32,616 nucleotides of DNA, taken from assembly GCA_002084585.1 (NCBI GenBank), contig NBLM01000010.1, positions 1-32,616 on the forward strand. Reading direction: 5' to 3'. Source of the DNA: Planctomycetales bacterium 4572_13. Its GTDB lineage: Bacteria; Planctomycetota; Phycisphaerae; Sedimentisphaerales; Anaerohalosphaeraceae. Position numbers and translations under genes: made by a program. Position 1 is the first letter of the stretch. Each line of letters opens with the position of its first letter. Below, in pieces: positions 30,523-32,557 of this stretch. The notes beneath the pieces are model-generated. The model ran no database searches and was not told where the DNA came from. It saw only the letters and a program-made list of their open reading frames with translations.

Positions 30523-31488
30523 ATGATCGATTATTTAGATTTTTTTACATATCTGAAAACAACCGAATTAGGTGATTTCGCACAAGCGATTCACAGGACT
30601 ATGGAATCGGCGATGCGGGAGTTGTCGCATGGGGATTTGGGCCGGTGGTGCGGGGCGATTGAGGGGATGCCGGAGGGAACGGTTTCTGAAATTGACTTAG
30701 CAAACGATACGATAACGGTTGCGGGCGATATGGATGCTGCAAAACGAGCGACTCTCAAGCAGCATCTAAAAGAGCTTTGTCCATGGCGGAAAGGGCCGTT
30801 TGATCTGTTCGGGGTCCACATCGATACCGAATGGCGATCGGATTTGAAGTGGGCACGGCTTAAGGATCATATTGACTTACAAGATGAACGCGTCCTCGAT
30901 GTCGGCTGCGGCAACGGGTATTACCTGTTTCGGATGCTGGCCGCCGGGGCGAGGGCCGCCGTGGGGGTCGATCCGACCCTGTTGAGTGTGATGCAGTTTC
31001 ACGCGGTCAATCGCTATGCGAGAACCCACCGTGCCGCCGTTTTGCCGCTGGGGGTGGATGCCGTTCCGGCGGACTGCGGCTGCTTTGATACGGCGTTCTC
31101 AATGGGGCTTCTCTATCACCGCCGCGATCCGAAAGAACATCTCAAACAGCTGCACGGCTTTGTCAAGCCCGGCGGCCGGGTGGTGCTGGAAACGCTCGTG
31201 TTGGATACCGACAAAGAAGAATGGCTTGTCCCAAAGGAGCGTTATGCGAAAATGCGCAATGTTTGGGCCATCGCCTCGCCGGGGCTTTTGCAGAAGTGGC
31301 TCACCGATTGCGGCTTTGAAAATGTGCAGGTGATCGACCTCACCCAAACAACCTCAACCGAACAGCGAAAGACCGACTGGATGACCTTCGAATCGCTCGC
31401 CGACTTCCTCGACCCCGCCGATAACACCCAAACCATCGAGGGCCACCCCGCCCCAGTCCGCGCCATCCTGACCGCACAAAAACAATAG
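30523..31488 (+). CDS. cmoB: tRNA U34 carboxymethyltransferase CmoB
   Basis: 321 residues, the normal CmoB length. CmoB transfers a carboxymethyl group from carboxy-SAM to 5-hydroxyuridine at the wobble position of tRNAs. Signature parts: LCPWRKGPFDLFG (85-97) and DTEWRSDLKW (101-110), which are specific to CmoB rather than other methyltransferases, then SAM motif I VLDVGCGNGYY (124-134) and VGVDP (147-151), with MGLLYHRRDP and FVKPGGRVVLET later. The C-terminus carries MRNVWAIASP and RKTDWMTFESL, also CmoB-like. Its partner CmoA, which makes carboxy-SAM, is not in the window. There is no strong Shine-Dalgarno. It follows the nucleotidyltransferase by 70 bases and may be read from the same or its own promoter. 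Confidence 0.92.
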   Translation: MIDYLDFFTYLKTTELGDFAQAIHRTMESAMRELSHGDLGRWCGAIEGMPEGTVSEIDLANDTITVAGDMDAAKRATLKQHLKELCPWRKGPFDLFGVHIDTEWRSDLKWARLKDHIDLQDERVLDVGCGNGYYLFRMLAAGARAAVGVDPTLLSVMQFHAVNRYARTHRAAVLPLGVDAVPADCGCFDTAFSMGLLYHRRDPKEHLKQLHGFVKPGGRVVLETLVLDTDKEEWLVPKERYAKMRNVWAIASPGLLQKWLTDCGFENVQVIDLTQTTSTEQRKTDWMTFESLADFLDPADNTQTIEGHPAPVRAILTAQKQ

Positions 31489-31619: not shown

Positions 31620-31660
31620 GAATGCGTCTTTTTTGTATGCGAATACCTTGGGGGTCTAAA

Positions 31661-32557
31661 TTGAAAATCTTTGTTGCTGTAACAATCCTTTGTTTGTTCT
31701 CGCTAACTGCGTTTTCGGCGGGGCTGGATGTGGGTGATATCAATCAGGATAGGCGTGTGGATTTTCAAGACTTCGCTTATCTCGCCACCGACTGGCAGGA
31801 ATACACGACGCGGTCGGATATAACCTCCGATGGGGTTGTCAATGGTTACGACTTGTTGCTGCTGGCTGAGGATTGGCTAAAAACAACCCATCCAGACAAT
31901 CCCGAAGTAACCCTGCACATCACCGGAGCCGTTAACGGGACCATCGTCGTCGAACTGTATGCTGACGAAGCCCCCGTTTCAGTTGAAAACTTTCTGGATT
32001 ATGCAGAGACCGGTTTCTATGACGGGTTGATTTTTCATCGTGTGATGAAGGATTTTATGGTTCAGGGCGGCGGCTTCGATACGGACCTCGTTAAGAAAGC
32101 TCCCGGCGAATCAATTATCAACGAAAGCTCCAACGGCCTGTCGCATCTTCGCGGAACCCTTGGGATGGCTCGAACATCGCAACCTCATTCGGCAACTTCG
32201 GAGTTTTTTATCAATCATATGGACAACGCTTTTCTCGATCGCGCCCCCATTGTCTATGACGGACAGAACAATGCTTACATTAAATACGGTTATTGTGTAT
32301 TTGGCAAAGTACTTAGCGGGATGGATGTTGTTGACGCGATTGCCGCCGTGGATGTACACTATGTAAACGAAAACTTTGAAACTGTTCCCATCGACGATGT
32401 GATTATCCAAAGTGCTGTCATTACACGCGACGCGCCTGTCTGTGCGGAAAAGCTCGAAGGGGATGTGAACGGCGATTGCAGTGTAAATCTCGCTGATTTT
32501 GCCAAGCTTGCCCAGAACTGGCTGGTGTGCAATTCGATTACTTCCGTCTGCAATTAA
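31661..32557 (+). CDS. Secreted cyclophilin-type peptidyl-prolyl isomerase with dockerin-like repeats at both ends
   Basis: 298 residues from a TTG at 31661. GGGGG lies 6 bases upstream, the promoter start rules out the ATG at 31622, and this start gives a clean signal peptide (KIFVAVTILCLFSLTAFSA). An ATG at 31637 is the alternative. Mature order: two dockerin-like calcium repeats (GDINQDRRVDFQDFAYLATD, 25-44, and SDITSDGVVNGYDLLLLAED, about 52-71), a cyclophilin domain (about 84-256) and one more repeat (GDVNGDCSVNLADFAKLAQN, 267-286). Cyclophilin active-site residues are present: FHRVMKDFMVQGG gives R127, F132, M133 and Q135, and EFFIN gives F183. The Trp of cyclosporin-sensitive forms is Phe here (NAFLD). 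It should act outside the cytoplasm, perhaps docked to other proteins. No cohesin is visible nearby. Confidence 0.92.
   Translation: MKIFVAVTILCLFSLTAFSAGLDVGDINQDRRVDFQDFAYLATDWQEYTTRSDITSDGVVNGYDLLLLAEDWLKTTHPDNPEVTLHITGAVNGTIVVELYADEAPVSVENFLDYAETGFYDGLIFHRVMKDFMVQGGGFDTDLVKKAPGESIINESSNGLSHLRGTLGMARTSQPHSATSEFFINHMDNAFLDRAPIVYDGQNNAYIKYGYCVFGKVLSGMDVVDAIAAVDVHYVNENFETVPIDDVIIQSAVITRDAPVCAEKLEGDVNGDCSVNLADFAKLAQNWLVCNSITSVCN

What the first reader, a model, noticed from the sequence alone, without database searches (positions are those of the whole stretch)
31661..32557. Cyclophilin flanked by dockerin-like repeats at both ends
A secreted peptidyl-prolyl isomerase with two EF-hand-like dockerin repeats at the N-terminus and one at the C-terminus is unusual: dockerins are best known on glycoside hydrolases, usually as a pair at one end. 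Here the folding enzyme itself seems able to dock. The catalytic residues look intact, so it could be a foldase recruited to extracellular or periplasmic protein assemblies. The split 2+1 repeat layout also raises the question of whether the halves pair across the domain.
Basis: partly seen in the sequence, partly recalled or inferred. Interest (0 to 1): 0.7.

Follow-up and report, generated by a model that had tools for sequence, protein, structure and literature searches.

The report
Secreted cyclophilin with two dockerin-type ends
This is a secreted protein-folding enzyme from an uncultured planctomycete that carries a calcium-binding docking module at its front end and, at its back end, a shortened cysteine-rich version of that module which its relatives use as a tail on many secreted proteins, apparently without the usual docking partner.

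Summary
ORF 31661-32557 (TTG start, 298 aa) is signal peptide, canonical two-repeat dockerin, cyclophilin with intact active site, and one more dockerin-type repeat at the very C-terminus. The "2+1 split dockerin" reading is not supported. Orthologous cyclophilins keep the C-terminal repeat without any N-terminal dockerin; the N-terminal pair was gained once and is found in only three species of one genus. The C-terminal repeat belongs to an order-wide class of about 38-residue tails: single repeat, usually close to the stop codon, Cys replacing Gly6 of the EF-loop together with an upstream Cys (68 both, 0 one, 10 neither), and a second Cys pair after the helix. This predicts a self-contained module stapled by disulfides. 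Several relatives carry 130 or more matches per genome. Outside the order the tail is almost absent (2 weak hits in about 280 phylum genomes). Cohesins are missing from this genome and from 93 of 98 genomes searched, including complete genomes rich in tails, so classical cohesin docking is unlikely to be the main mechanism. Best reading: a surface or matrix foldase displayed through a cohesin-independent attachment tail, receptor unknown. The anatomy is solid; the function is inferred.

The parts
31661..32557 (+). CDS, 298 aa, TTG start (alternative in-frame ATG at 31622), stop TAA at 32555-32557
   Evidence: start supported by ATG at the same position in orthologs L002/L003
31661..31720 (+). 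signal peptide (LKIFVAVTILCLFSLTAFSA)
   Evidence: read from sequence; N-terminal hydrophobic helix in the AlphaFold2 model; no signal-peptide predictor was run
31727..31885 (+). N-terminal two-repeat type I dockerin module; Ca-loops 31736-31771 and 31817-31852
   Evidence: Pfam Dockerin_1 31.1 bits for the pair alone; loop ligands; two helices 35-48 and 62-76 after the loops in a low-confidence part of the model (pLDDT about 50-60)
31904..32428 (+). cyclophilin (Pro_isomerase) domain with the FHR..F-M-x-Q-G-G-G, M-A-R and E-F-F-I-N active-site motifs
   Evidence: Pfam 3.5e-43; PDB alignments to E. coli PPIases; model pLDDT mostly over 95, Foldseek best hit 1j2a E=1.7e-22
32441..32554 (+). C-terminal single-repeat mini-dockerin tail, CAEKLEGDVNGDCSVNLADFAKLAQNWLVCNSITSVCN; Ca-loop 32462-32497 with Cys at loop position 6
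   Evidence: conserved in the ortholog clade; order-wide tail family; one helix 277-290 at pLDDT about 70
32441..32443 (+). Cys261, proposed disulfide partner of Cys273
   Evidence: co-occurrence of the two Cys in independent tails: 32/0/2/8 in contiguous stretches, 68/0/0/10 in the wider set
32477..32479 (+). Cys273 at EF-loop position 6 (replaces Gly)
32528..32530 (+). Cys290, proposed disulfide partner of Cys297
   Evidence: among tails with the loop Cys the downstream Cys number 2 or 0 (17 and 13 of 30 close to the stop; 46 two, 20 none, 2 one)
32549..32551 (+). Cys297, proposed disulfide partner of Cys290

Best explanation
A secreted cyclophilin peptidyl-prolyl isomerase that is held in the cell-surface or extracellular matrix of the bacterium by dockerin-type calcium-binding modules. 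The ancestral anchor is the C-terminal tail, a single EF-hand-type loop-helix repeat that does without the second dockerin repeat because two disulfides (Cys261-Cys273 and Cys290-Cys297) hold it; the same tail type is used on many secreted lectin-like, Ig-like and hydrolase proteins of this order and probably binds one common, still unknown, non-cohesin receptor or surface component. In one genus a canonical two-repeat dockerin was later added at the N-terminus, giving a second attachment point. The foldase would then act locally on other displayed or secreted proteins. Shown: domain anatomy, orthology, single gain of the N-terminal pair, tail class, cysteine co-occurrence, order restriction, lack of cohesins. 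Inferred: calcium binding, disulfides, attachment, catalytic activity and substrate.
For: Cyclophilin and dockerin domains. The tail is conserved in 13 orthologs counting the window protein, and the clade holds together in a tree of the whole proteins (93/89). The N-terminal pair maps to one gain. The tail profile rings 17 times in this genome and 131-152 times in six of the relatives searched (some capped). Of 294 phylum genomes it matches all 10 sampled genomes of the order and only 2 others, once each. In 1.2 Mb of contiguous sequence from three complete genomes, 38 of 42 single repeats lie within 25 aa of the stop codon, and loop Cys and upstream Cys co-occur 32/0/2/8, p=4e-7. Cargo of 37 such ORFs: 20 with Laminin_G_3, 10 with Ig_3, glycoside hydrolase family 2, CBM_4_9 and others. 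Cohesins are absent from this genome by Pfam and by an order-specific profile, and from complete genomes G046 and G050 that have 147 and 131 tail matches.
Against: No receptor or sorting enzyme was identified, so attachment is inferred only from position, breadth of use and resemblance to dockerins. The genome is a fragmented MAG (83% complete). Some tails lack the second Cys pair, and some single C-terminal repeats lack all four Cys. The model of the N-terminal dockerin is low confidence and no coordinates were available to measure Cys-Cys distances. The tails could be structural only.
Confidence: 0.45

Rival explanations
1. Classical cohesin-dockerin docking: the N-terminal dockerin (and perhaps the tail) plugs the foldase into a cellulosome-like scaffold whose cohesin lies in the missing 17% of the MAG or is too diverged to be recognised.
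For: The N-terminal module is a bona fide two-repeat dockerin by Pfam. Five of 98 genomes, one of the same genus, have Pfam cohesins over the cut-off, and several cohesin proteins in G085, G015 and G041 carry dockerin-type repeats themselves. A cellulosome survey lists Limihaloglobus sulfuriphilus with a two-cohesin scaffoldin (PMC11557425), and a cohesin-dockerin 'planctosome' was proposed for freshwater Planctomycetes (PMC6461901).
Against: No cohesin in this genome, none in G002, a 99%-complete congener with the same 2+1 cyclophilin, none in complete genomes G046 and G050 that have more than 130 tail matches.
Confidence: 0.2
2. The repeats are calcium-stabilised structural caps or spacers of a secreted protein, with no specific partner.
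For: EF-hand-like repeats can be purely structural (established knowledge); disulfides and calcium would stabilise a terminal module; no receptor was found.
Against: The same tail sits on unrelated cargo mostly at the extreme C-terminus, and is nearly confined to one order, which fits a tag better than a stabiliser.
Confidence: 0.25
3. Split dockerin: the C-terminal repeat pairs with the N-terminal repeats across the cyclophilin domain.
For: Three repeats are present and the termini of cyclophilins can be near each other; the model does not exclude contact.
Against: The N-terminal pair is already a complete dockerin. Ten of the 13 clade members first analysed have a C-terminal repeat but no N-terminal dockerin. 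Free-standing tails of this type are found on many other proteins with no second repeat nearby.
Confidence: 0.04
4. The tail is a processed sorting signal, cut off or cross-linked by a dedicated enzyme, as PEP-CTERM is by exosortase.
For: C-terminal position, use on diverse secreted cargo, and two relatives of this cyclophilin in the same family carry a PEP-CTERM-like end instead (L021, L030).
Against: No transmembrane segment or basic end in the tail. Exosortase and PEP-CTERM proteins coexist with the tails in this genome, so the tail does not replace them. No co-restricted processing enzyme was found or sought genome-wide.
Confidence: 0.06

Closest known systems
Type I dockerin (Pfam PF00404), as in cellulosomal enzymes
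   Same: N-terminal module: two repeats with EF-type Ca-loops, helices and the WL pattern, over the Pfam cut-off
   Different: It sits at the N-terminus of a foldase; no cohesin in the genome; the C-terminal repeat is single, below the cut-off, with Cys at loop position 6 and two Cys pairs
GC-type dockerin domain-anchored proteins (NCBIfam NF041540)
   Same: The best NCBIfam dockerin match of the N-terminal pair (23 bits when given alone, cut-off 29); by its name also seen as an anchoring domain
   Different: 67-position model that the N-terminal pair fits below its cut-off; the C-terminal tail gives no match
Single-repeat dockerin Clocl_2271 of Clostridium clariflavum (PMC4582956)
   Same: One dockerin repeat only
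   Different: One N-terminal exception among about 75 dockerins of a cellulosome with cohesins; here a C-terminal tail repeated many times per genome in a whole order
Proposed 'planctosome' of freshwater Planctomycetes (PMC6461901)
   Same: Planctomycete secreted proteins with dockerin modules not linked to cellulose
   Different: That model rests on cohesins and peptidases; here no cohesin and the cargo is a foldase
E. coli cyclophilins PpiA/PpiB
   Same: Fold and active site
   Different: They have no docking modules; this genome has two further cyclophilins on contig C69 whose matches stop near the end of the cyclophilin domain

Membership tests
Cyclophilin (PF00160) | domain score over the curated cut-off | tested here: met
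   148 bits against 21.7, E=3.5e-43
Cyclophilin (PF00160) | active-site residues (Arg, Phe, Met, Gln of FHR..FMxQ; Ala of MAR; Phe of FFIN) | tested here: met
   aligned with E. coli PPIases of known structure; invariant or nearly so in 37 homologs
Cyclophilin (PF00160) | peptidyl-prolyl isomerase activity | not testable with these tools
   needs an assay
Type I dockerin (PF00404), N-terminal module | two repeats with Ca ligands at 1, 3, 5, 9, 12 | tested here: met
   31.1 bits, over the cut-off; loops
Type I dockerin (PF00404), C-terminal tail | two repeats / score over cut-off | tested here: not met
   one repeat, 19.6 bits against 22.9
Type I dockerin, functional sense | a cohesin partner encoded in the genome | tested here: not met
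   no match to PF00963 at E<=1 nor to an order-specific cohesin profile; the genome is only 83% complete
Cellulosome component | multi-cohesin scaffoldin | tested here: not met
NCBIfam NF041540 GC-type dockerin | score over the curated cut-off of 29 bits | tested here: not met
   21-23 bits for the N-terminal pair, none for the tail
PEP-CTERM sorted protein | PEP motif, transmembrane segment, basic end | tested here: not met
   no such sequence in the C-terminal 38 residues; the nearest relatives with a PEP-CTERM-like end are L021 and L030

The most novel reading that the evidence does not exclude
The C-terminal repeat exemplifies a cohesin-independent attachment system private to one planctomycete order: a disulfide-stapled single-repeat mini-dockerin used as a C-terminal tag on many secreted proteins per genome, with an unknown receptor; the cyclophilin is a surface foldase of that system.
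Probability: 0.4. Interest if true: 0.7.

Novelty: new variant of a known kind. Interest (0 to 1): 0.5.

Why it matters
Dockerins are treated as markers of cohesin docking. Here a whole order uses a reduced, cysteine-stapled dockerin repeat on many secreted proteins while nearly all its genomes lack recognisable cohesins, so annotation of such proteins as cellulosomal would be wrong and a different partner must exist. A foldase carrying the tag suggests that protein folding on the cell surface or in the matrix is organised by the same system. The tail, only about 38 residues, would also be a compact calcium-dependent tag for engineering if its partner is found.

Tried and rejected
Split-dockerin pairing across the domain: rejected on orthologs with the C-terminal repeat only. 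First AlphaFold2 run with 13 sequences (mean pLDDT 54): not used; the second with 37 sequences (78) supports the cyclophilin and one helix in the tail but gives no coordinates, so disulfide geometry and domain contacts could not be measured. One 49-residue entry (protein 3) was a mistyped mixture and is ignored. Adding two-repeat dockerin segments to the structure alignment misaligned them, so they were left out. Exosortase as an alternative to the tail: both coexist. Genome neighbourhood: the CmoB-like gene upstream is shared with L003 but not L002, so no operon signal. Descent of the single tail from a two-repeat tail by loss of one repeat: L098, L101 and L010 have a two-repeat tail whose outer parts match the single tail (10/16 and 16/22 identical for the window tail against L098), but on the cyclophilin tree these lie inside the single-tail clade, so the direction may be the reverse and is left open. 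Literature: no paper held combines dockerin and cyclophilin in this sense; Peer et al. 2009 on noncellulosomal dockerins is not held.

Full report
Observation. The window's last gene, 31661-32557 (+), reads through 298 codons from TTG; an ATG lies 39 bases upstream in frame, but orthologs L002 and L003 start with ATG at the position of the TTG. Pfam finds Pro_isomerase (3.5e-43) and Dockerin_1 (2.6e-10, two stretches). Three EF-type loops are present with ligands at 1, 3, 5, 9 and 12: two at the N-terminus (31736-31771, 31817-31852), one at the C-terminus (32462-32497). The N-terminal pair is a full dockerin by itself (31.1 bits, cut-off 22.9); the C-terminal repeat alone stays below (19.6). 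The cyclophilin active site matches E. coli PPIases in the key motifs, and the model of that domain is very confident (pLDDT mostly over 95, Foldseek 1.7e-22 to 1j2a). The N-terminal dockerin part of the model is of low confidence (50-60), with two helices after the loops; the tail has one helix at about 70.

Host. The window lies in a 1.81 Mb, 83%-complete MAG. Relatives G018, G085, G058 and G040 have contigs of the same lengths as public Phycisphaerae/Planctomycetes MAGs (JAAYVQ010000045, PLLP01000021, JALWYQ010000010, MHYB01000057), so the host is taken to be a member of class Phycisphaerae; order Sedimentisphaerales is my inference.

Orthologs and history. The search in 98 genomes (97 relatives and the window's own) found cyclophilins in nearly all. 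In a tree of the best matches, 13 form one clade (93/89) that shares the C-terminal repeat; more distant groups carry other repeat arrangements (two to four repeats at the C-terminus, or repeats around long repeat domains) or a PEP-CTERM-like end. Only the window protein and the orthologs in G002 and G009, all of one genus, have the N-terminal pair; G005 of the same genus lacks it in this gene. On a tree built from the cyclophilin domain alone the N-terminal pair needs one change. This genome has two other cyclophilins on contig C69, matched only over the cyclophilin domain.

The C-terminal repeat is a distinct tail class. Its 38 residues contain four cysteines. A profile of the clade's tails rings 17 times in this genome, 48 in G002 and 131-152 times in G050, G015, G046, G018, G041 and G005 (scoring partly capped at 150). 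A profile built from diverse cargo (A4) over 294 genomes of the phylum matched all 10 sampled genomes of the order, and only two others of the class with one weak hit each (counts per genome capped at 25). To avoid selecting for cysteine, I took six contiguous 200-kb stretches of three complete genomes and searched with a profile of one repeat in which the loop-6 column was masked. Of 59 ORFs with repeats, 42 have one, 38 of these within 25 residues of the stop codon. Cys at loop position 6 and a Cys up to 18 residues upstream occur together in 32, loop Cys alone in 0, upstream Cys alone in 2, neither in 8 (Fisher p=4e-7). Among the 30 of these tails that lie near the stop codon, the downstream Cys number two (17) or none (13), never one. 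Over all held loci, a set partly chosen with the tail profiles, the counts are 68/0/0/10 and 46 two, 20 none, 2 one; in 25 C-terminal two-repeat modules the last repeat never has the loop Cys. Paired presence and absence is what two disulfides predict. Position 6 is normally Gly in EF-type loops (established knowledge), so Cys there is a specific change. Cargo of 37 single-repeat ORFs: Laminin_G_3 in 20, Ig_3 in 10, glycoside hydrolase family 2 in 2, CBM_4_9 in 2, an M12 peptidase, BNR and beta-helix proteins: typical secreted or surface proteins.

Partner. All 98 genomes have dockerin-type matches but only 5 have a Pfam cohesin over the cut-off. A cohesin profile made from the order's own cohesins finds the same genomes among the 18 searched and none in this genome, in G002, or in complete genomes G046 and G050. 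Where cohesins exist, several of the proteins bear dockerin-type repeats themselves, as adaptors do. A published survey lists Limihaloglobus sulfuriphilus as having a two-cohesin scaffoldin (PMC11557425), and a cohesin-dockerin 'planctosome' was proposed for freshwater planctomycetes (PMC6461901). So classical docking may exist in a few genera but cannot explain the bulk of the tails, nor, on present data, this protein. Exosortase is near-universal in the order and PEP-CTERM proteins occur in this genome, so the tail is not a substitute for that system.

Mechanism. Shown: anatomy, conservation, single gain of the N-terminal pair, tail class, cysteine co-occurrence, order restriction, cohesin absence. 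Inferred: the tail folds alone around one calcium with two disulfides and attaches the foldase to a common surface or matrix component; the added N-terminal dockerin gives a second, perhaps different, contact.

Novelty. Dockerin-type repeats and cyclophilins are known; single-repeat dockerins have been noted as exceptions (Clocl_2271, PMC4582956); NCBIfam has a 'GC-type dockerin domain-anchored' model, which this protein does not reach. A cysteine-stapled single-repeat tail used order-wide without cohesins, and a foldase bearing it, were not found in the literature held. I file it as a new variant of a known kind.

Noticed in passing
L028 (G007), 579-aa ORF on the minus strand around 846-1355: A cyclophilin domain fused behind what looks like a glycoside hydrolase (GH5-like by eye) in a genome of the same genus.
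   Followed up: no
L021 (G023) and L030 (G030): Cyclophilins from genomes of the same family that end in a PEP-CTERM-like sorting signal instead of a dockerin-type tail.
   Followed up: partly
L017, L027, L029: Cyclophilins followed by a dockerin-type repeat, a long FG-GAP-like repeat region and a further C-terminal dockerin-type repeat (about 640 aa).
   Followed up: no
alignment A7 members (G015, G041, G046 stretches): One protein with a single-repeat dockerin-type tail matches the type VI secretion Hcp family (PF05638, 4.9e-27).
   Followed up: no
L010, L098, L101 C-termini: Orthologs with a two-repeat tail; in L098 and L101 the first loop carries Cys6, and in all three the second repeat ends in the same WLxCxSITxxC motif as the single tail; looks like unequal recombination between repeats.
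   Followed up: partly
G022:C142 around 140187 and G052:C10 around 28049: Dockerin-type matches inside open frames of 14,875 and 11,126 codons: giant, probably surface, proteins.
   Followed up: no
L003 2461-2832 and L004 995-1360 (minus): A small membrane protein (DUF1294-like by eye) directly downstream of the cyclophilin in two congeners; the window contig ends before that position.
   Followed up: partly
window 30523-31488: CmoB-like tRNA methyltransferase (PF08003, 4.4e-114) upstream of the cyclophilin; neighbour kept in L003 but not in L002.
   Followed up: yes
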